Assembly: GCA_900074885.1 (NCBI GenBank)
Contig: FJUW01000066.1
Coordinates: forward strand, 1-64,000
Source of the DNA: Rhynchosporium graminicola
Lineage: Eukaryota; Ascomycota; Leotiomycetes; Helotiales; Ploettnerulaceae
Direction: 5' to 3'
Length of the DNA: 64,000 nt
Shown here one piece after another: positions 1,135-14,658 of the stretch. How positions within the stretch are numbered: the first letter of the stretch is position 1; each line of letters starts with the position of its first letter. A program made the translations under genes and the position numbers. The notes beneath the pieces were generated by a model that was given only the letters and a program-made list of their open reading frames with translations, was not told the origin of the DNA and did not search any database.

Positions 1135-1402
1135 TATAATAATATAAGACTTAAGGTAGTATATAAGTAAGAATAAACAAGTAGGGAAGCTAAGAGCGAT
1201 CTTATATAGTCTACTACGAAGGAAATAAAAAGATAAGGAAAGAAGAAGAAGAGAGATAGAATATAAGGCACCTTATATATACATGCCGGTACTAGCCCGA
1301 TACTATACCGAGTCGGATACTAGTTCTACTGGGATACCTATGAACTTAGGCCCTAGTATCTATCCTTCTTCTCATGTGATATTCAGGTGAGCTATCGTTA
1401 TA
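1135..1402 (-). repeat. A1 3' LTR (268 bp)
   Basis: Same sequence as 8635-8902, 31921-32188 and 39430-39697, and in reverse as 56881-57148. In element sense it starts at 1402 (TGTGACGACAGC in the least mutated copies) and ends at 1135 (TCTTGTGTCGTTACA in those copies). A run of alternating T and A near the middle is the likely TATA box of the LTR promoter. Here the tips read tataat and cgttata, which is RIP decay. Confidence 0.95.
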
Positions 1403-1438
1403 TTACCCCTCCTCTAAGAAGAGCTTAACCCTAAGCTC
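1403..1438 (-). promoter_or_regulatory. A1 polypurine tract plus upstream tetraloop hairpin
   Basis: The sense strand has a purine tract (AGAGGAGGGGTAA) directly against the 3' LTR, the expected primer for plus-strand DNA synthesis. Eighteen bases upstream, at 1421-1438, is a perfect hairpin: GAGCTTA-ACCC-TAAGCTC on the plus strand. The same arrangement recurs in families B, C and E. Confidence 0.75.
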
Positions 1439-1663
1439 GGAAGGTTATAGTTTATACTAGAATTAGTCTTTATTATAACTATTTTCGTCGATATTCGCGT
1501 AATAAGCGCTAGCTGCTCTTTAGTAGTAGTAAATTCTTTATTAAGTTCTGACTAGTTACGTCGCTATAACGGTACTATATTAGTCGTAGCTTCTAAATCG
1601 GGCGGTAAGCAGTATTTACTTTATCTATTTATAGTAGGAGTTAAGTTTAAGTAGGGCGTAGAG

Positions 1664-1673
1664 TATATAAAGG
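1664..1673 (+). promoter_or_regulatory. Candidate TATA box of the antisense gene in A1
   Basis: tatataaagg lies 67 bp upstream of the proposed start of the antisense gene and is followed by a pyrimidine-rich leader. A2 has the identical box at 32450-32459, again 67 bp from the start. Spacing and conservation fit a core promoter; nothing here shows that it was used. Confidence 0.5.
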
Positions 1674-1851
1674 AAGGGGTTTATTAATATTAGAGCCTTT
1701 CCTTTTCAACCGCGATAACTACTTTAACTTATAAGTTTACTCTCCTTAGACTGCGATATAGCTCCTATAGTAGGTATTATTACTAACTACTATAGTAGTC
1801 TGCTATAATCTTATATATTAATCGACCTAATTAACTCTTCTCTTAATATAA

Positions 1852-1933
1852 GTAAGTTTCTTATCTTAGTTTTAGAGATAGTCCTTAAGTGTAGTATAAG
1901 GGTTTCACGGATCTATAACGCTAACTCCTATAG
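1852..1933 (+). other. Predicted spliceosomal intron 1 of the antisense gene (82 bp)
   Basis: Donor GTAAGT, branch-like CGCTAAC ending 9 bases before the acceptor CTATAG. Phase 1: the codon split is a|tg, restoring Met. It moves the frame from register 0 (exon 1) to register 1 (exon 2), which is where each side is open. A2 has the same intron, also 82 bp, at 32638-32719. Confidence 0.65.
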
Positions 1934-2412
1934 TGCCTTTACTAGTTCCTGCCGGTGCTCTTTCGGCGGCGTATTATATATATTACATAAGATATATTCG
2001 CGCATTCCTTAAGATAAAGTATAATAATACTCTTATTTTAGAACTCTTATACTTATTTAATAAGCTTAACTCTAAGCTTTATAAGTATTATTCGGCGTTA
2101 AAGAGTAGTTATAAGTATATAAGTTACTTAAATATAAACGTAGTTATATATACTAATACGTTATAGTTACCTGATTACGTTAATATAGAGTATATTATTT
2201 TATCTAGTTTACTTCCTAGCGGCGAAGCTAAGGATACGGAGCTGAATCGGGGTAGTATCGTAGCTACTTATAAGGCTATTAATCGGATCTATTATCTCAC
2301 GAAATCTGCTGCTCTTACTATTATATTAGAGATTACTACTATATAATTAGCAGAGACTTAAGCTTTAAGGCGTTCTATAGAGAAAGTATTTAAGGAGTTA
2401 GAGTTTATTAAG

Positions 2413-2468
2413 GTAATAAGTTACGATCTTAAACCTTTAGATACTAGTATAATACTAACGTGATATAG
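2413..2468 (+). other. Predicted spliceosomal intron 2 of the antisense gene (56 bp)
   Basis: Exon ends AAG, donor GTAATAAGT, textbook fungal branch site TACTAAC, acceptor ATATAG. Phase 0, joining a codon ending at 2412 with one starting at 2469; the open frame changes register exactly here. A2 has the same 56-bp intron at 33199-33254, with the branch site partly decayed. The length is typical of filamentous fungi. Confidence 0.72.
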
Positions 2469-2913
2469 GATTTAGATCTTCTAATAGTTAATTCGGCGGA
2501 ATCTAAGTTAATAGCTAAAATAGCGTTAAAGTAGATAAAGGAATTAAATAGTATTATATAGGAATTTGTAAAGAAAGCTATATTTAAGGCTACGATATTT
2601 AACGTTAGGAGAAAGAGGAATTTACCTTCTAGTTCAGAGATAGTATCGGATCTAAATACTCTTAGACTCTCTCTAAAGAAGAAAGCCCGTAGGATTAGCT
2701 ATTATACTCGGTCTGCTACTAGGGCTATATTAGCAGATTTAGGTAAGGAGTTAGATATAGTAGTTCTAGTTCTAGATTTACTAGAAGCTCCGGAGAACTT
2801 AGGAGAGAAAGCTAGTAAGGTAGAAGTAGTTAAAGAAGTAGAGTTTTAGATATAGTATTATTACGGAGTATAATTAGGGGATTATTCCTAGTAATAAATT
2901 CTAATACTAGTAA

Positions 2914-5900
2914 CTATAATAGCTTATTATCCTCTAAGTAACTATAGTTATCTATTCCGTCTTCTTAGGCCTTAATCTATTAATCTAGTTTACACGGAGG
3001 TCTAGGTTTACTTAGGTTAATAGCGTAGAAGTCTCTAAGCTTATACGAAGTACTTATTAGGTCGGAAGCGTTATACTAAGTTAGGTCCGGGTCGTGACTT
3101 AGCTAGCTAACTTAATACTTCAGATTACCTCTTAGGAGCTATATAGCGAGTATATCTTATAACTCTTACTCTTCTTAAGTAGTAATAACCTCCGGGGGTA
3201 GGTTTAGTAACTCCTAGCCTAGTAATAAGTCGTCCGAGTCCTTAAAGAGTAATTCAGGAGCGAATATATCGTATATAGAAGATCTCGGGGGTAAATCTAG
3301 CTTATAGGAGTATCCGATCTTAGCTAGGACCTAGTATAGTCTTACCTAGAGACTAGATAGCTTCTTACTTAGCTAGTGATTCTTAAGGTTCCTTATAAAG
3401 AGAAATACCTTATCTCTAACTTCCTAGTCGATACTACACCGTTTCGGGTAAGTTACGGCGCTTATCTTATACTAAGTAGCTAGTATATTAGCTTTTATAA
3501 CCTCGATAGCGGATTTAGTATATTTAGCTAAAGATTTAGTATCAGTATAGTTAAGCTTCTCTTGTAGTATCGATCCGGTAAGTTACTTCTAGTCCTAGCT
3601 ATTCCGTAGTAATATACTATATTTAAAGGTATATAGCGCTATACTAATAGAGTCGTGAGGCAGGATTACTTAAGCGCGGTCTATTATCAGTAGTAGTTCA
3701 CCCTAGTTACTCTAGTAGTAATTAACGAAAGGTCTAAAGCGTTAGTTAATATACTAATTCATAATCTCCGTTTATCTATTAGTTTACTAGTAGAAGAAAG
3801 TAGAGAGCTTAACCTTAACTCTAATTATATAGTAAAACTCTTACTAGAAGGATAAGATTAACTAAGCTCCTCAGTCGGATATAATTAACTTAGGAGTATA
3901 TCCGAAACGATATATCTATTAGATAAATAATATCGCTATCTCGCGGGTATCGATATTATAATAGTATAGTATCGATATAGAGTCCTTCCTTAGGCGGTCG
4001 ATAAATACTAATATCCTATTAAATCCTTAGTTATCAGGCGAGAAGTCCTTAAAATCTATAGCTAAGTGCTATATTAGGTAGCTAGGTACCGGTAATAAGT
4101 AGAGGAATTTTTACTGTTTCGTTTGCTTCGGATAAGAGTATTAATAGGAGCGGTAATTGCGAGTATACTATTTCATATCCGATACGAGTCCTTTCTAGTA
4201 GTAATAAGTAGAAATTATTTTAGCAGTCTTACGAGTATTTAGATAAGCAGAGGAAACTTAATCGTAGACTTCACTAATTAAATAGGTATATAGCAGGGTA
4301 TAGCGTTATACGTATAGATAACTATTATAAAGTAGTAAACTATTATTAATAGTATAGCTATCTCCTAATATATTCTATTTATTAGAGAACGATTCTTAGT
4401 TGAATTAGTATAGTTTCTCGATTAAATTAAAGGAATTATATACGAGTTCTAGTAGCGTATTAGTCCCTAGCGATATTAGGTATATATAACTAATTTAATT
4501 AATATAATACTTAGCTAGTTTCGCGTTAATTCTAGAGTCTAAGTAGTCTAGAGGTAATAAAACCCGAGATCTACTATCCTATTTCTGTTATTCCTATATC
4601 CTTAGATCTTATTCCCTATAGCTAAGGATATTAGCTTTAGCGTTATCTTTACTAAGCGTATATATAATTTGAAAGTTGAATTCAGAAAGGAATTCTATTT
4701 ATCTAGCTTACTTATTAGTTAGGACCTTAGTAATTATAAAGTATTCTAAGGATCGATAGTCCGTATATACGCTAGTATAGCGTCGTAGAGATATAAGTTC
4801 TAGTCTCTATTTCCGGAAAGACTTAATAATAGTATATAGCTCTTTATCGTAGATCTTCTAGTTTAGTTTATATCTATTAAGAATATAGGAGTAGAATCTA
4901 ATTAGATACTACTAGTTATCTTTATATAATTAGGAGATAACTCTAGCTATTATACTATTAGAAGTATTAGTTTCTAGTTTAGTTTATAATTCAGGGTCGA
5001 AATAGTATAGTTTCTATACTAATAGTAGCTATTAATATAAATCGTTAAAGGACTTCTTATAATCGTTAGTAAAATTCTATAGTACTATAGGCCGAGTAAG
5101 TACTAAGAGAAGTTTAGCGATAAGGCCGAAATTCCGAATAAATTAATAGTAGAACTTATAGAGTCTTAGGAAGGATTTCATAGCTATTACTATTTCAGGG
5201 TACTTCTAGTCTACTAACGGTATTACCTTCTCAGGATCTGGCTCGATTCCGTTAGTAGTAACGATATATCCGAGGTATTTAGTCTAAGTAATATAGAATT
5301 CGCTTTTCTTAATATCTACTTAAAGTCTAGTATCTATTAAGTATCGTAGTATTAATTTGATATATTCCTTATATTCCTAGAGCGTTTCCGAGTATATAAG
5401 GATATTATCTAGGTAAGCTATATAGAAATTATCCAGGTAGTCTAGTAGTATATTATTTATATATCACTAGTATATATTAGGTCTATTATAGAGCTTAAAA
5501 GGTAGTACTTTGCATTTATAGGATCCGAAGCGAGTTTAGAAGGTAATATACTCCTCTGATTCAGGGTTTATACAGATATAGTTAAATACTACTCGGATAT
5601 CTAGTTTAGTAAAGATTACTACTTTAGATATACGAGTTAAGAGCTTATCGATCCTAGGTATTAGGTATAAATCCTTTCGAGTGATTATATTAAGCTTATA
5701 ATAGATAATATAGAAGCGTAATCCTCTATCGGCCTTCTTAACGAATAGTATAAGTAATATAAAGGGACTTTAGCTAGATTCGATAAATCCCTTATCTAGG
5801 TTCTCTATAAGATACTCCTTAGTTACTTATAATTCGTCTGTAGATTACTAATATAGGGGCGAATATACGTTAGGTAATAGTTCTTCTAGAATAATTTTAT

Positions 5901-6800
5901 AATCGTATAAGCGATACAGCGGAAGAATATTAGAATCCCGCTTAGAAAAGGCTTCCTTAAGGGTATAGTACTATTCCGGTAGCTTTTTAGCTACGAGTTA
6001 TTCGGTATTAGGATCCTTAGGAGAGTTACTATTTAGATAGTCTTATAAGAGGCGGTCTATCTCGTAGATACTAGTAAAGAATAATTCGGAACCTTTACGT
6101 TTTATATTAAAGTAAAAAGCTATAGTACTAATTTAGTAAATCGGAACTAGTTTCTAGATCCTTAGAGGTTAAGAGAAGCACTTACAGTAGGATTTCGGCG
6201 CAAGTACTTTTCTCGATAAATTCGGAGCGGAAAGGGGTTCGGATTCCTTAGCGATAAGCGGAAATAAGTTAAAGAGTAAGGACGATACGTTAATATACTA
6301 TATTACTACTATTTAGTATAATCGGTATTAGTCTAGCTAGTTTATAGCTAAGTCCTACGCGTTAGTATCGATTTAGTAAGATCGATTAATATTAGGTTTA
6401 TAAGGCAGTAGAGTTATAATTATCTCCTTATTATATTAGAGGGTAGCTAGATAGCGTTCCGACTATAGTAGCTTATAGTAGAGCGTATCTAGCTTAACTT
6501 GAAATCGTTATATCTATTTGATACTAATAATTATATCTTATTATTCTAAATCGAGAAGAATAAAAGGGTAGTTATAAATACGCTTACTATTAATAGAAAG
6601 GTATAAACATATGAAATAGGTGATATAGGTTCTAATAGACTATTAGAAACTACGTATTAGAATAGAATAAAGTAATAGCTCGATTTTAATACTAAGAGCC
6701 CCTAATAGTTATCTAGTAAGAGTGCGATTAATAAATAAATAACTATTCGCTTCAGTATTAATCAAGCTATTTATAGAGACTCTTAGCTTATTTATACTAA
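2914..6800 (-). pseudogene. A1 pol: protease, RT, RNase H, integrase, chromodomain
   Basis: One frame runs from protease to stop without a frameshift. The protease active site reads N-T-E-A at 6748-6759 where A2 has D-T-K-A and the family norm is D-T/S-G-A. RT begins near 5725 (FYIDYYKLN-like) and its catalytic box is YLDN at 5404-5415, a RIP change from YLDD. Integrase occupies about 4500-3300 and a chromodomain about 3210-2960 (KYRVSWLGH-like core with Trp codons turned to TAG). The stop is at 2914-2916. Many TAG/TAA at Gln and Trp positions make it non-functional. Pol is in the -1 frame relative to gag. Confidence 0.9.
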
Positions 6801-8600
6801 CTATAGTTAAGTATATAAATTACTTACCTCTTATCAGGGAGTTAAGGTCTAGATTAGAGAGATTATATTTATATAGACCTAAGAAAGAGTTTTTACTTAA
6901 GCCTTATTATTTCTCTCTAGTATTAGTCTAGATTCGGAGGGTATATTTTCTACTACTTCTTTAGTTACTTAATCCTCTTCTGGAAATTTATTAATTAATT
7001 AAACTTTAGGCAGATTAGGGTAGTCTAGCTTAATATAACCGAGCTATTTATAATTATAATACCTAAGGGGTTCTCCAGTTGAGGTAGTAAGGCGTTTTAG
7101 CGCGAAGGGAGTACTAGCTTATACCGGGGTAGAAGTATATACGTATAATACGAGAGTAGTTTATCGAGGAGCTAAGCTTAAGGACTAGTAAGAAGTAGAA
7201 CTAGTAGTAGTTATAGTAGTAATAGTAGGCTTACGGTACTATACCTAAGCAGTAGCTTTCTCGGGATAGGTACGTTCTGAGTTATAGCGATACTCGGTAT
7301 TAAAAGAAAATAAGGATCTAACTATAGAAGCGTAGTCCTTATTCTACGTTAGTTTAATAATAAGGGTTAAAACGCGTAAGGATAGTATAATCTTATCCTA
7401 TATATAGAAGAACTACTCTTTCTTTTTAATCTTACTTTAGATAGTAGCGCTTTAAAATCGACTACGAAACTCAGCGAAAGTCTTGCATATATAGCTAGGT
7501 TATTATATTTCTAGGTAGTAGAAAGCGTTATAATAATTATCTTCTTCTAAACTAGTAAGAAAGTTCTTCTTTAATAAAGAGATTATTTTATCACTAGTTT
7601 TAAACTTATTAGTAAAGTACTAAAGCGTAAGATACTCCTTAGCTAATCTAGTAATTAGCTCCTATACGAGAACGCGCTAGGAGAAGTCTATAGGGTAGTA
7701 GTTAGCGTTTATAGCTAGCTAGTCTCGTATCGATACTCTCTATTAGAGGAAAGTAAGGTCTGATCTATTATCTAGAGGTAGGATCTTCTTAGTAAGATAA
7801 GACTTCTTAGGGTATAACTCTACTGATTTAGCGCTAGGAGAGGGAGATAGTTTATTAGGAATAGTATCTTCTCTCTCAGTACTATATATCGGAATAGAGT
7901 TTATTAGGTTATTGAACTTTACTATACGCGGAGATTATAGTATTAGTTCTAGTAGGAGAGTCGAAGATAAGCGAGGGACTCCTATAAGGAACTTATCTTA
8001 TACGGAGATTAGTCTATCTATAGTATCTTCTAGAGAGTTATTCTTTTCCTCTTAGTCCGCTAATTATTATAAGAGGGAATAGATTAGGTTCGAGTTACCT
8101 ATAGTAGTAAGAGTACTTAGCGATTATACTCTTAGTGAATTTCGCTTTTATTTTCTTTTCCCTCTTAGTTAGTACTTCCTTAATAAGGTATTAACGTTCT
8201 CTAGGGCAGGAGACGTTTAGGGTAAAGAAGGGTATAATAGATTAGGTTCAGAGGTAGAGTAGGAGGGATCGCGTCGAGTTCCTTTAGAACTAGAGGAGTC
8301 TCTAGTTTATTAGTTAAGAGTTATAATAGTAGCTTAAAAAAAGGTATATTAAGGCTATTTTAGTAGTAATATATAGAAGTTAAAGTTCTAGGGTATTTAT
8401 TATACTTTCTTTAAAATCTATTTATAATTCCTTTATACTAAGAGGGTTATTAAAGGAGCGTTAGCGAAAACTTCCTCTATTATACTATTTGCGATAAGCT
8501 AAATTAAACCCTAATTTATAGTTATCCGAGAGATCTCTAGTATCTTAGCTATATACAAGTAGTTATCGAATAATTAACTTAGTAGTAAGATATTATAGTA
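6801..8600 (-). pseudogene. A1 gag with CCHC zinc knuckle
   Basis: Capsid-nucleocapsid region just inside the 5' LTR. A zinc knuckle lies at about 7017-7061: C-x2-C-x4-H-x4-C spacing, with three of the four ligands changed to Tyr (TGT/TGC to TAT/TAC, CAT/CAC to TAT/TAC), a direct RIP effect. The N-terminal start was not located; 8500-8634 is probably leader. The boundaries given are approximate. Confidence 0.75.
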
Positions 8601-8634
8601 AGCTATCTCTAGCTATCTTAATCTTTTTTTTTAA

Positions 8635-8902
8635 TATAACGATATAAGACTTAAAGCGGTATATAAGTAAGAATAAATAAGTAGGGAGGCTAAGAGCGAT
8701 CTTATATAGTCTACTACGAAGGAAATAAAAAGATAAGGAAAGAAGAAGAAGAGAGATAGAGTATAAAGTACCTTATATATATATACTAGTACTAACCCGA
8801 TACTATACCGAGTCGGATACTAGTTCTGCCGGGATACCTATAAACTTAGGCCTTAGTATCTATCCTTCTTCTTATATGATATTCAGGTGAGCTATCGTTA
8901 TA
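8635..8902 (-). repeat. A1 5' LTR (268 bp)
   Basis: Matches the LTR at 1135-1402 in length and, apart from scattered C/T and G/A differences, in sequence. It ends at 8902 against the duplicated target taaat. The sense-strand sequence just inside the element (ttaaataaaaagattaa) would hold the primer binding site; I could not match it to a tRNA. Confidence 0.94.
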
Positions 8903-10781
8903 TAAATAATCTATCGTTTAGAGGTATCTAAGAGTACTTAATATTCCGAAAGCCAGGTCCTTCTAAGTATAATACTATAGTTTCCGAGAGTAGTAATAAG
9001 AAAGGGGGTAAATACCTGAACGTGACGATCTACTATTAAATTAAGTATCGTATAGTGACTAATAGTACTACTATTAACGCTATTAAAGCCTTTAATAGGA
9101 ATTACGTTTAGCAGAGGGTAAATTGAAAGTTTTAAGAAGAAGGAAAGGGATTTAAGAAAAGAATAATTAATAAAATAATATCTATTAGCTCTAGAATCGA
9201 GAAGTGCGGGTAGCTTATACGAGAGTCTATTCTTAGTAAGAGTAGTACGTATAGTGAACGATTAACTACTAAGAAGCTTCGTAAGGTTAAGATATCGTAT
9301 ATCTCGTATACTACCTAGGAAGGAGTCTTTCCCTAGGCGTAGTCTTTTGCTAGCGGTTTAATATACTCCTAGGCGTTATCGTACGTCTCTTTATTATTAT
9401 TATCTTCTAACTCGCTATAAACGTCGTTATTAGCGTTAATTACATTAATTCGATACGGAGTATTAGGTCGAGCTGACGACGAGCGTAAGTATAAGGTAGG
9501 CGTAAAGTAATAAGGAGTATTCGCCGGCGATTATAAACGAGGCGTATAATTTCGTAAAGAGTATAGTACTTATTTACTAGTCATACTAGTATTCTCAGGC
9601 GTAAGAAGACTAATTTGCGGATAAGAAGAGGAGTTAGTACTACAGCGCTAGGAGGAGGTATTTATAGGGCGTTCCCGAGTCGCGCTAGCCTTAGCCGAAG
9701 ACTCGGAATAGTAGGTCATTTCAATAAATTAACCTTAGTCTTCAGCTTATATAGCCTTAACGTATTCTTCTAGTATCCTTAACGTTCAGTACTATTAGAA
9801 GAGCTATTTCAATAGCTATAAAAGTAGCTTCTCATATAAGTCAATTTTCAGAGTCGATTAATTATTTACTATAGCTTTACGAGCTAGCGTACGAAACTCG
9901 TAGTAGAACGTCCAGAAGGTCTACTTATAATCTATCTTTAGCGCGGAGTAGCTAGCTCTTACAGTTTATTAGTTGTATAGATTAGATAAGAAAGAGACGA
10001 GTTAAGTGATCATATCGAGTGAATCGATTATACTACCTTCTTCGTTATATTCTAGTTCTAAGAATAAGGGTTCTAGGTAGGTTCTAGCTATTCCTTCTGT
10101 TTAGTTAAGTAACTAATCTTTATAGTAGTCTTCGTCGATAAAGTAGCTAGAGTAGCGCCGGAGGGCGTTACGTATCTAAACTTCATAGAGTTTTAGAGAG
10201 TAGTCGATTCTATTAGAGAGCTTATTTAGAAGGTTTAGTATCTTCTCTATACGCGTAGCGTATAATATTAACGATATTCCTCCGGTAGATTATTCTAAAA
10301 AATAATTATAAAGAATAAGAGTAGCGTTATCTTCTTTAATTAATAGTAGTAGTATTATACGCGATTAAATATTATCAAACGATATAGACTTAGTAGAGCG
10401 CTAAGTAATCAACTAGCGTAGTTCTAGGAACTTATCCCGTAACTAGTATAGTTCTGCAGATAAGTTAGCGTTTAATTATCTCTCTTCCGCGAGCTTCCTT
10501 TCTGCCTCTTATAGCTAGTAAGCGCGGTCTTCCTATAAGTTACTTATAGTTACTATTAATATAAGGGTATTATCAGGGAGGTTTAGCGACTTAGTAAGTT
10601 CGTTGATTATAGTAGGAGTTAGGAAGCTTAACTCGGACGAGGTGTTATCGCGAGTACTCTCTACTATAGAGAGAGGTAGGTTATAGCGAGTATTACGAGT
10701 CGCCGAAGAATAAGAGGTAGAGGGAGTCGGAGAACTAGTAGTCAATTTATCGGACTTAGGTTACTTCGGTTTAGGTACTAT
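8903..10781 (-). pseudogene. B3 gag
   Basis: Gag of the B family resumed beyond the A1 insertion, with the protease start at its left end. By comparison with B1 and B2 the start codon is at 10781, where ATG has become ATA in a good Kozak-like context. An undisturbed stretch of 70 codons in this frame runs 10745-10533. The conserved gag-pol junction (CCTAGGGAAAG on the sense strand) is at about 9330-9345. Stops are RIP-type. Confidence 0.85.
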
Positions 10782-10915
10782 TCTTTAAGTTTATACTTAG
10801 TATAGGCCTTCTCTATATAGCGTAGTCTCTTACGTTTAGTAGCTCTAGGCATAGAGGTATAATATAAGTAGATATTTACTATCTTCCTAGACGTAGGTAA
10901 AAGAGTTATAGATAA

Positions 10916-11150
10916 TATAATACTTACTCTAGAAAGGTCTTAAAACTACCTGAGTAATAAGACCTTATATTACTATAAATATAAAGTAGTAAGAATCACT
11001 TGAGAATCTATAACTAAGGAGTAAAGAAGTAGAGAGAGAATAGAAGTATATATATGAAAAGGGGCCCCTAAACTCTACTCGTGTAATCTCGCTTAGCAGT
11101 AAGTGTTTCTACTAATAGGGAGAGACCTCTAAACCTGACCAGTCGTCATA
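10916..11150 (-). repeat. B3 5' LTR (235 bp)
   Basis: Same length as both B1 LTRs. In sense it starts at 11150 with TATGACGACT and ends at 10916 with the decayed TATA tip (CGTCACA in B1's 3' LTR). It contains the family's pyrimidine-rich block after a short TATA-like run near 11050. Confidence 0.93.
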
Positions 11151-11579
11151 TTTCTTATAATTATTAGTAAAGTTCTATAGTATTATAAGCCAGGTAAATA
11201 TTAAGAGAAGTTTAATAATAAGGCCGAAATTCCGAATAAATTAATAGTGAAACCTATAGAATCCTAAGACGGATTTTATAATAATTACTATTTCGAGGAC
11301 CTTCTAGTTTACTAATAGTATTATCTTCTCAGGATCTAGCTCGATTCTGTTAATAACAATAATATATCAGAGGTATTTAGTCTAAGTAATATAGAAATCG
11401 CTTTTCTTAATATTTACTTATAGTCTAGTATCTATTAAGCATTATTATACTAATTTAATATATTTCTTATATTCTTAGAATATTTCTAAGTATATAAGAG
11501 TATTATCTAAGCAAGCTATATAGAAATCGTCTAGATAGTCTAGTAGTATATTATTTATATATCGTTAGTATATACTAAG
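11151..11579 (-). pseudogene. A4: RT fragment of an older family A copy
   Basis: Colinear with A1 positions about 5053-5490 (the RT palm region around the catalytic box) in the same orientation. It is the oldest layer here: B3 entered on its left (flank tttct) and A5 on its right (flank ctaag, 11575-11579). The remainder of A4 right of A5 is not in the window. Confidence 0.85.
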
Positions 11580-11848
11580 TGTGACGACAGCTCACCTGAA
11601 TATCATATGGGGAGAAGGATAGATGCCGGAGCCCAAGTTCATAAGTATCCCGGCATAAATAGTATCCGACTCGGTATAATATCGGACTAGTACTAGCATA
11701 TATATATAAGGTGCTTTATACTCTATCTCTCTTCTTCTTCCTTCCTTTTCTTTTTAATTCCTTAGTGATAGACTATATAAGATCGCTCTTAGCCTCCCTA
11801 CTTATTCTATCCTTACTTATATATTACTTTAAGTCTTATATCGTTATA
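11580..11848 (+). repeat. A5 5' LTR (269 bp)
   Basis: Begins TGTGACGACAGCTCACC, an undecayed tip, and ends cgttata. A TATA-like run lies near 11702-11712. It follows target bases ctaag in A4. Confidence 0.94.
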
Positions 11849-11899
11849 TTAAATAAAAAGATTAAGATAGCCGGAGATAGCTTATTATAATACCTTACT

Positions 11900-13660
11900 A
11901 CTAAGTTAGTTATTTAATAATTACTCGTATATAGTCGAGATACTAGAGATCTCTCGGATAGCTATAAATTAGGGTTTAATTCAGCTTATTATAAACAGTA
12001 TAATAGAGGAGGTCTTCGCTAACGCTCTTTTAATAACTCTCTTAGTATAAAGGAATTATAGATAGATTTTAAAGAAAGCGTAATAAATACCCTAGAACTT
12101 TAATTTTTATATATTACTACTGAAATAGCCTTAATATACTCCTTTTTAAGCTACTATTATAACTTCTAACTAATATACTAGAGACCTCTCCGGTTCTAAA
12201 GGAAATTAACACGATCTCCTTTACTTTATCTTTAAACCTAATCTATTATACTCTTCCTTATCTTAAATATCTCTTATACTAGAGAATTTTAATACCTCCT
12301 TAAGGAAGTACTAACTAAGAGAGAAAGGAAAATAAAAGTGAAATTCACTAAGAATATAATCGCTAAGTACTCTTACTTCTATAGATAACTCGAATCTGAT
12401 CTATTCTCTCTTATAATAATTAGTAGACTAAGAGGAAAAGAATAACTCTTTAGAAGATACTATAAATAGACTAATCTCTATATAAGATAGGTTCCTCGCA
12501 GGGGTCCTTTACTTATCTTCGACTCTTCTATTAGTGCTAATATTATAATCTCCGCGTATTCTAAAGTTTAAAAGCTAATAAACTTAATTCTAATACGTAG
12601 TACTAAGAGAGAAGATACTATTCCTAATAAACTATCGCTCTCTCCTAGCGCCGAATTAGTAGAGTTACGCCCTAAGAAGTCTTATCTTACTAAGAAGATC
12701 TTACTTCTAGATAATAGATTAGATCCTACTTTCCTTTAGTAAAGAGTATTAATACGAGACTAGCTATCTATAAACGCTAACTATTATCCTACGAACCTCT
12801 CTCGGCGCGTTCTCGTATAGGGACTAGTTATCAGATTAGCTAAAAAGTATCTTACGCGTTAGTACTTTACTAATAAATTTAAGATTAGTAATAAAATAAC
12901 CTTCTTATTAGAGAAGAACTTTCTTACTAGTTTAGAAGAAAATAACTATTATAATACCTTTTATTACTTAGAAATATAATAACTTAACTATACCCGCGAG
13001 ACCTTCGCCAAGTTTCGTAATCGATTCTAAAGCGCTATTATCTAAAGTAAAGTTAAAAAGAAGAAGTAATTCTTCTTTATATAGAATAAGATTATACTAT
13101 CCTTACATACTTTAACTCTTATTATTAAACTAATATAGAATAAGGATTACGCTTCTATAAGTAGATCTTTATTTTCTTTTAATACTAAGTATTACTATAA
13201 ATCAGAACGTATTTATCCTAAGAAAGCTACTGCCTAGATATAGTGCTATAAGCTTACTTTTACTACTACGACCACTTCTAGCTCTACTCCTTACTAGTGC
13301 CTAAGCTTAGCCCCTCGATAAACTACTCCCGCACTATACGTATGTACCTCTACTCCGGTATAGGCTAGTACTCCCTCCGCGCTAAAACGCCCTGCTACCT
13401 CGACTGAAGAACTCCTTAGGTATTACGATTATAGATAGCTTAGCTATATTAAGCTAGACTGCCCTAATCCGCTTAAGGTATAATTAATCGACGAATTCCT
13501 AGAACAGAAAGGTATAACTAAAGAGATAGTAGAGGATATACTTTCCGAATTTAGACTAATATTAAAAGGAAATAATAAGGCTGAAGTAAAAACTCTTTCC
13601 TAGGTTTATATAAGTATAATCTCTCTAATCTTAACTTTAACTCCTTAATAGGAAGTAAGT
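11900..13660 (+). pseudogene. A5 gag
   Basis: Region parallel to A1 gag. The CCHC knuckle is at 13421-13462 (first, second and third ligands now Tyr, fourth still Cys), followed by a conserved Leu-Asp-Cys-Pro. The start is not established. The protease that follows is in the -1 frame. Confidence 0.72.
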
Positions 13661-14658
13661 AATTCATATATCTAACTATAGTTAGTATAAATAAGCTAAG
13701 AGTCTCTATAAATAGCTCAATCGATACTAGAGCGAACAGATACTTATTTATTGATCGTACTCTTACTAGACGACTATCAGAGAGAGGCCCTTAGTACCAA
13801 GATCGAGCTACTATCTTATTCTATTCTAATATATAGTTTCTAATAATCTGTTAGAACTTATATTACTTATTTTATATATTTATACTTTTCTATTAATAAT
13901 AAGTGTATTTATAACTATTCTCTTATTCTCCTCGATTTAGGATAGTAAGATATAATTATTAGTATTAAATAGATGTAACGATTTCAAGTCAAGCTCGATA
14001 CGCTCTACTATAAGCTACTGTAGTCGGAACGCTATCTAGCTACTTTCTAATATAGTAAGAAGATAATTATAACTCTATCGCCTCATAAACCTAATATTAA
14101 TCGATCTTACTAAATCGATACTAACGCGTAGAACTTAGCTATAAACTAGCTAGACTCATATTAATTACCCTAAATAATAAAGATATAGTATATTAACGTA
14201 TTATCCTTACTATTTAACTTATTTCCGCTTATCGCTAAGGAGTCCGAACCCTTTTCTACTTCGAAATTATTAAGAAAAGTACTTATATCGAAACCTTATT
14301 ACGATTATACTTCTCAACCTTCGAGGATCTAGAAACTAATTCCGATTTACTAAATTAATACTATAGCTTTTTACTTTAATATGAAATACGAAAGCTCCGA
14401 ATTATTCTTTACTAGTATTTATAAGATAAACTATATCTTATAAGACTATCGGGATAGCGACTCCTCTAAGGATCCTAATACTAAACGACTTATAGCCGAA
14501 AAGCTATTAGAATAGTATTATACTCTTAAGAAAGCTTTTTCTAAGCGGGATTCTAATATTCTTCTGCTTTATTACTTATATAATTATAGAATCATTCTGA
14601 AAGAACTATTATCTAATATATATTCGTTCTTATATTAATAGTCTATAGAGGAACTATA

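What the first reader, a model, noticed from the sequence alone, without database searches (positions are those of the whole stretch)
1652..2897. Spliced antisense gene hidden in a chromovirus, between pol and the 3' LTR
On the strand opposite to gag-pol, three frames become one 340-codon frame if two introns are removed. Both introns have good signals (GTAAGT...CGCTAAC...CTATAG, 82 bp; GTAATAAGT...TACTAAC...ATATAG, 56 bp) and their phases (1 and 0) match the only open registers on each side. A TATA box lies 67 bp upstream. Sense-oriented genes lose introns during retrotransposition; an antisense one keeps them, because the genomic RNA carries them as non-spliceable complement. I do not recognise the protein. 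Additional ORFs, some antisense, are known in plant Tat-lineage elements; I know of no described intron-bearing one in a fungal chromovirus, but I could not search.
Basis: partly seen in the sequence, partly recalled or inferred. Interest (0 to 1): 0.93.

Follow-up and report, generated by a model that had tools for sequence, protein, structure and literature searches.

The report
Antisense split gene in fungal retrotransposon
A repeated jumping element in a barley-pathogen fungus carries, on the strand opposite its own genes, a two-part reading frame that is likely an extra protein gene whose message is predicted to be spliced; such backward genes are already known from a related fungus, so this looks like a further and partly new example.

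Summary
The window lies in Rhynchosporium graminicola (R. commune). At 1652-2897, opposite to gag-pol of a Ty3/Gypsy element, there is a real reading-frame signal, but not the open 340-codon frame described. The window copy has 8 in-frame stops (RIP mutation), and all 150 listed copies of the main exon are broken. Across 48 aligned copies, exons 1934-2415 and 2469-2849 stay far more open than shuffles or shifted frames and show no subfamily indels, while the introns and spacers do. No transcript was available: splicing is predicted. Relatives found are only from Rhynchosporium (14 deposited proteins). An antisense gene at this place, brtn, is published for Boty elements of Botrytis and Sclerotinia; homology could not be tested. 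Function is inferred: likely a nuclear accessory protein. Verdict: new member of a known kind.

The parts
1135..1403 (-). 3' LTR of the element (gag-pol is on the minus strand)
   Evidence: direct repeat with 8635-8903, 269 nt, 92%
8635..8903 (-). 5' LTR of the element
2914..8634 (-). gag-pol region, RIP-broken; RT and RNase H recognised; pol stop inferred at 2914-2916
   Evidence: Pfam RVT_1 3.5e-10, RT_RNaseH 1.8e-14 on stop-masked pieces; stop in the pol frame in 48 of 48 copies
1664..1671 (+). TATA box (TATATAAA), candidate promoter of the antisense gene
   Evidence: TATATAA in 47 of 48 copies, TGTATAA in one
   Evidence: 3 in-frame stops against 4.4 in shuffles, P 0.32; fewer than in the shifted frames
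1852..1933 (+). predicted intron 1, 82 bp
   Evidence: GT 48 of 48, branch CTRAC 48 of 48, AG 46 of 48; 1-bp deletion shared by 7 copies
1934..2415 (+). coding exon; first two bases complete a predicted start codon A|TG with base 1851
   Evidence: A at 1851 in 48 of 48; TG in 29 and TA (RIP-type) in 19 of 48; as few stops in 0 of 5000 shuffles; no indel in 48 copies
2416..2468 (+). predicted intron 2, 53 bp (54 in a second group of copies)
   Evidence: GT 15 and AT 33 of 48 at 2416, AG 37 and AA 11 of 48; 54 bp in 6 of 6 second-group copies
2469..2849 (+). last coding exon with stop; holds the basic SLKKKA motif
   Evidence: 2 stops against 14.5, 0 of 5000 shuffles; in 48 copies only a 9-bp deletion private to the window and one unshared 1-bp indel; SLKKKA in 14 of 14 deposited proteins
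1283..1386 (+). alternative first exon inside the 3' LTR used by deposited gene models; considered doubtful
   Evidence: frame free of stops in 32 of 43 copies; N-terminus of this kind in 11 of 14 deposited proteins by motif; its ATG looks RIP-made

Best explanation
Between pol and the 3' LTR of a multi-copy, RIP-mutated Ty3/Gypsy retrotransposon there lies, on the opposite strand, a two-exon reading frame that is likely an accessory gene of the element, whose transcript is predicted to be spliced twice and whose protein would act in the nucleus. Shown: the position, the strand, the openness of both exons across copies, the intron-like signals, where indels fall, and that the aligned copies keep the introns. 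Inferred: transcription from the internal TATA box at 1664; an untranslated first exon; a start codon put together by removal of intron 1 (A|TG); a protein of about 287 residues ending at 2849, tail-to-tail with pol. Inferred and untested: the SLKKKA stretch works as a nuclear localisation signal, and the protein regulates transcription or integration of the element, as proposed for other antisense proteins such as HBZ of HTLV-1 and GENE23 of Grande. The introns would persist because the RNA that is reverse-transcribed is the sense strand, in which they are only complement and cannot be spliced.
For: Exon frames: window 3 and 2 stops against 16.1 and 14.5 in dinucleotide shuffles, 0 of 5000 as low in each; over 48 copies a mean of 3.3 against 16.7 and 20.9 in the shifted frames (exon 2), and 2.5 against 26.0 and 13.3 (exon 3). 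Six further copies: 2-4 in exon 2 against 16-23. Four listed exon-3 matches have no stop at all. Columns where every copy has a stop: 2 and 0 in the two exon frames, 7-16 and 2-10 in the other five. Indels shared by 3 to 46 of the copies: none in exons 2 and 3; four of 1 bp in the leader, intron 1 and the spacer after the stop. Intron 2 is one base longer in 6 of 6 copies of a second group, where its read-through frame has 3-4 stops in 18 codons. A strict donor-branch-acceptor set occurs 4 times in both strands of the window, one being intron 1; a loose one 26 times. R. secalis protein P0002 reads EFIK-A-DLD, as a donor at 2416 predicts. 39 of 48 copies match from the LTR into pol in one piece. 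SLKKKA is in 14 of 14 deposited proteins.
Against: No transcript or spliced read was seen. No intact copy: the 150 listed exon-2 matches carry at least two stops each, and two stop columns are fixed in 48 of 48. The stop-column test is blunt: the last 128 pol codons, taken as coding, have 5 fixed stop columns and a mean of 10.9 stops against 13.2 and 16.4 in shifted frames, and over 2850-3300 one plus-strand frame ties with pol at 6 fixed columns. One frame on the pol strand of exon 3 is about as open (2 fixed and 5 variable stop columns against 0 and 10). Transversions favour third codon positions only weakly (31 of 64 in exons 2 and 3; among those seen in two or more copies 8 of 16, exon 2 alone 3 of 8), and only 2 near-fixed ones separate the groups, one at a third position. 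Two of the six second-group copies are disrupted near the end of exon 3. Deposited models cut the frame differently and mostly start in the LTR; they rest on prediction programs with manual choice. The AlphaFold model is poor (mean pLDDT 47), so no fold speaks for a nuclear role. The aligned copies were picked by unbroken matches, which may select against copies without an intron; but intron 2 matched in 87 of 88 loci, many overlapping, the exception being a deletion copy.
Confidence: 0.55

Rival explanations
1. The gene starts inside the 3' LTR, as HBZ of HTLV-1 does: exon 1283-1386, a small exon 1573-1604, then 1934-2415 and 2469-2849.
For: These four exons add up to 999 nt and are in phase; the LTR exon frame has no stop in 32 of 43 copies (0 of 43 in either shifted frame) and the small exon in 45 of 45; splice dinucleotides are GT 42 of 44, AG 38 of 45 and GT 44 of 45. 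11 of 14 deposited proteins from three species carry the LTR-encoded N-terminus.
Against: At 1283 the copies read ATG 18, ATA 16, and GCG, ACG or GTG in 7 of 43; since RIP makes C to T and G to A, the ATG is probably RIP-made. The same may hold for the acceptor at 1572, where two copies (the window among them) read GG, and for the next Met, where four copies read GTG.
Confidence: 0.2
2. One reading: exon 1 (1689-1851) is coding and joined to the other two, 340 codons.
For: In phase with exon 2; fewer stops than in the two shifted frames (mean 3.4 against 6.0 and 6.7) and the fewest fixed stop columns of six frames (1 against 3-4). Parts of this frame occur in some deposited proteins.
Against: 3 stops against 4.4 in shuffles, P 0.32; no copy free of stops (0 of 46); unshared indels of 1 and 3 bp, two types each; no start codon at 1689 (variants).
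Confidence: 0.1
3. The frames are coding but not spliced: two separate proteins, or one short one, without introns.
For: The exon-2 frame has no fixed stop column within intron 2 in the 48 copies; in the second group the intron is 54 bp, so that reading through would keep the frame; no RNA evidence exists.
Against: In the 48 copies reading through leads into a frame with 10 fixed and 24 variable stop columns; in the second group the read-through frame has 3-4 stops in 18 codons of the intron, against 2-4 in 160 of exon 2.
Confidence: 0.15
4. A fragment of a host gene or of another transposon, caught once in antisense and carried along without a role for the element.
For: No significant Pfam match and no relatives outside the genus found; known aORFs are also of unknown origin (PMC7264820, passages).
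Against: In the same place in 48 of 48 aligned copies, without subfamily indels in the exons. Copies outside the element were not searched for systematically.
Confidence: 0.15
5. Not a gene: a chance open frame in AT-rich RIP-mutated sequence.
For: All 150 listed copies are broken, and exon 1 is not significantly open.
Against: Exons 2 and 3: 0 of 5000 shuffles each, the same in 48 copies, with indel evidence that does not depend on RIP.
Confidence: 0.06

Closest known systems
brtn of Boty-like elements (Botrytis cinerea, Sclerotinia sclerotiorum; Zhao et al. 2011, known to me here by title and citations only)
   Same: Antisense gene between pol and 3' LTR of a fungal element (PMC7264820, passages) whose gag-pol has a chromodomain (PMC4227169, passages); same order Helotiales (recalled)
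   Different: No relative outside Rhynchosporium was found at E <= 10 (candidates of about 138-540 residues only, only the 7995 sharing most words). Introns of brtn unknown to me. The copies here are broken by RIP
HBZ of HTLV-1 and APH-2 of HTLV-2
   Same: Spliced antisense gene at the 3' end of a retroelement (PMC3185765, passages); here splicing is predicted only
   Different: HBZ has its initiation codon in an exon within the 3' LTR and a bZIP domain (PMC3185765); here an internal TATA box is favoured and no bZIP was matched
Antisense aORFs of plant elements (Grande GENE23, RIRE2, Retand ORF4)
   Same: Antisense frame between pol and 3' LTR; GENE23 is nuclear and has its own promoter (PMC7264820, passages)
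   Different: No TRP28 domain (PF04195) matched here; Retand is not a chromovirus (PMC11963269); the word intron does not occur in the main text of either paper

Membership tests
Ty3/Gypsy LTR retrotransposon (host element) | Two LTRs flanking gag-pol with RT and RNase H | tested here: met
   LTR pair, RVT_1 and RT_RNaseH; the gag piece tried matched no family
Ty3/Gypsy LTR retrotransposon (host element) | Chromodomain after the integrase (chromovirus) | tested here: inconclusive
   No Pfam chromodomain or integrase match in the stop-masked piece at E <= 1; only a sub-threshold Tf2-1 SH3 match, 2.8e-5. A chromodomain-like stretch was read by eye from memory
[quoted passage not shown]
brtn-type antisense gene | Sequence homology to BRTN | tested here: inconclusive
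   No named BRTN among hits at E <= 10, but its sequence and length were not available
HBZ-type spliced antisense gene | Spliced antisense transcript | not testable with these tools
   No RNA reads available
HBZ-type spliced antisense gene | Initiation codon in an exon within the 3' LTR | tested here: inconclusive
   Frame open in the LTR, but the ATG appears RIP-made
Retand-type aORF | TRP28 domain PF04195 | tested here: not met
   No match in two window pieces at E <= 10 nor in P0001, P0002, P0013 at E <= 1

The most novel reading that the evidence does not exclude
The start codon of this antisense gene exists only in spliced RNA (A|TG across intron 1), so neither the element's genomic RNA nor unspliced antisense RNA can make the protein: a retrotransposon gene gated by splicing, whose introns survive every round of reverse transcription because they are copied from the strand in which they cannot be removed.
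Probability: 0.33. Interest if true: 0.7.

Novelty: new member of a known kind. Interest (0 to 1): 0.45.

Why it matters
It would extend the brtn kind of antisense accessory gene to another fungal genus. Its predicted introns give a clean test of whether fungal elements, like HTLV-1, use splicing of antisense RNA to make a protein. It also shows how RIP can mislead gene finding: 14 deposited proteins of Rhynchosporium appear to be differently cut pieces of this transposon gene.

Tried and rejected
A coding exon 1 at 1689-1851 is kept only as a rival. Donor 2413 was rejected because five copies read GC there. I first read the open_frame_aa of about 319 as absence of intron 2; alignment showed a one-base longer intron instead, whose read-through frame is rich in stops. 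A further intron inside exon 2, ending at the fixed stop column at 2164, was set aside because the frame-keeping donors I saw would give introns of 27 nt or less (own reading of the sequence, no call). The codon-position test with transversions is weak. The structure model was too poor to search with; no fold search was run. Searches for relatives outside the genus found none. Four paper searches on antisense or additional genes in retroelements led to citations of brtn; in their listings I saw no intron-bearing antisense gene of a fungal element, but only passages of seven papers were looked at. Zhao 2011 is not held.

Rows dropped before counts: of 77 matches spanning 1654-2849, 48 were kept after removal of those sharing an identical 400-bp core; copies with broken matches are not in the counts. 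The second group of six is no random sample: L067 and L072 had been left out for broken matches, and L089-L092 were chosen for their long open_frame_aa. Only 150 of 615 candidates were scored and 40 of 630.

Full report
What the window is. The window is bases 1-64000 of contig C90 of a 55.3 Mb genome in 121 contigs. The closest deposited proteins are from Rhynchosporium, most from R. graminicola (R. commune), and contig lengths agree: C118 has 137,924 bases like the contig of P0009, and C93 has 199,433 like that of P0010. Composition shows strong repeat-induced point mutation (RIP): TpA/ApT of 1.44-1.98 and (CpA+TpG)/(ApC+GpT) of 0.10-0.47 in the 32 blocks of 2 kb. The element has LTRs at 1135-1403 and 8635-8903, with RT and RNase H on the minus strand. 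I call it Ty3/Gypsy; the chromodomain was read by eye and not confirmed by Pfam.

Check of the observation. None of the 150 listed matches to exon 2 in the genome is free of stops, the fewest being two; 615 candidates were seen by the first look. The statement that three frames become one open frame is therefore not literally true. Behind it stands a real signal.

Frame test. I aligned 48 distinct copies, the window included; 39 of them match from the LTR into pol in one piece. In exon 2 the proposed frame has a mean of 3.3 stops in 160 codons, against 16.7 and 20.9 in the other two frames of that strand; in exon 3 2.5 against 26.0 and 13.3. Of 5000 dinucleotide shuffles of the window none had as few stops in either exon. 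Stop columns fixed in all copies number 2 and 0 in the two exons, and 7-16 and 2-10 in the five other frames. As a control I took the last 128 codons of pol (2917-3300): 5 fixed stop columns, and a mean of 10.9 stops against 13.2 and 16.4 in its shifted frames. So even a frame taken as coding has fixed stops under this mutation, and two in the antisense frame are no bar; but the control also shows that the test is blunt, since pol is hardly better than its shifted frames, and over 2850-3300 it ties with one plus-strand frame at 6 fixed columns. I do not count it as coding, and keep it as a rival.

Indel test, independent of RIP. Exon 2 has no indel in 48 copies. Exon 3 has one 9-bp deletion, private to the window, and one unshared 1-bp indel. 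Exon 1 has four unshared types, two of 3 and two of 1 bp. The four indels shared by 5-7 copies lie in the leader (two), in intron 1 and in the spacer between the two stop codons, and all are 1 bp. A second group of six copies has 54 instead of 53 bp in intron 2, with no indel in exon 2; two of these six (L067, L072) are disrupted near the end of exon 3. Four of the six were chosen for this feature. With 54 bp the frame could be read through, but the 18 intron codons then hold 3-4 stops in each of the six copies, against 2-4 in the 160 codons of exon 2.

Splice sites. Intron 1 (1852-1933) has GT in 48, CTRAC in 48 and AG in 46 of 48 copies. A strict set of donor, branch and acceptor occurs four times in both strands of the window, once here; a looser set 26 times. 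As the copies are dead and GTAAGT holds no RIP target, its conservation shows what the ancestor had, not present selection. As RIP turns C into T and G into A, the donor at 2416 is likely the older one, and the R. secalis protein P0002 has the extra alanine that this predicts. Base 1851 is A in 48 of 48, and 1934-1935 is TG in 29 and TA in 19: removal of intron 1 would make an ATG at the head of exon 2. With a TATA box at 1664-1671 (TATATAA in 47 of 48) I favour an untranslated first exon and a protein of about 287 residues. That is inference.

The LTR start. 11 of 14 deposited Rhynchosporium proteins carry an N-terminus encoded in the LTR, and a four-exon model from ATG 1283 is in phase, 999 nt. 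It would be strikingly like HBZ of HTLV-1, whose initiation codon lies in an LTR exon (PMC3185765, passages). But at 1283 the copies read ATG in 18, ATA in 16, and GCG, ACG or GTG in 7 of 43 with letters; by the direction of RIP the ATG is likely made by the mutation. [quoted passage not shown] I keep this as a rival at 0.2.

Relatives and function. Three protein searches found 13, 14 and 13 proteins, all from Rhynchosporium. Pfam gave only weak sub-threshold matches to the frame or its relatives (DUF4884, E 0.091; DUF5659 in P0013, E 0.17). The AlphaFold model of P0002 is mostly helical but poor (mean pLDDT 47). The stretch SLKKKA is in 14 of 14 deposited proteins, which I read as a possible nuclear localisation signal. 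By analogy with nuclear antisense proteins of Grande (PMC7264820, passages) and HTLV-1 (PMC11963269, passages) I infer a nuclear accessory protein. A role of the antisense RNA itself, through double-stranded RNA, is not excluded.

Prior art. The antisense gene brtn of Boty is cited in PMC8365987, PMC4227169 and PMC7264820 (passages); the last says that such a frame between pol and 3' LTR occurs in Boty of Botrytis cinerea and Sclerotinia sclerotiorum. PMC5987419 (passages) reports a Monilinia transcript similar to truncated Pol and to BRTN. So the kind is known. Introns in it I could neither confirm nor deny, as Zhao et al. 2011 is not held.

Verdict. A real, in this genome apparently dead, antisense gene, likely spliced; a new member of the brtn kind, with a predicted splicing-made start codon as its most novel side.

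Noticed in passing
window 2774: The window copy lacks 9 bp of exon 3 that the other 47 of 47 aligned copies have.
   Followed up: partly
window 6486-14000: Long inverted matches (84-89%) show a second copy of the same family in opposite orientation from about 11584 on, with an LTR-like stretch at 11584-11806.
   Followed up: no
P0001-P0014: Fourteen deposited uncharacterized proteins of three Rhynchosporium species appear to be differently cut pieces of this one transposon gene; start codons used in the LTR look RIP-made.
   Followed up: partly
L042, L045, L064: Some copies hold a second piece of exon 2 or 3 within the fetched stretch, as if duplicated or nested.
   Followed up: no
L079 (1462-1932): A copy with a deletion that removes most of exon 2, intron 2 and the start of exon 3.
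   Followed up: no
window 2471-2849, minus strand: One frame on the pol strand opposite exon 3 is about as open as the exon itself (2 fixed, 5 variable stop columns); an 84-aa ORF is listed at 2444-2698.
   Followed up: no
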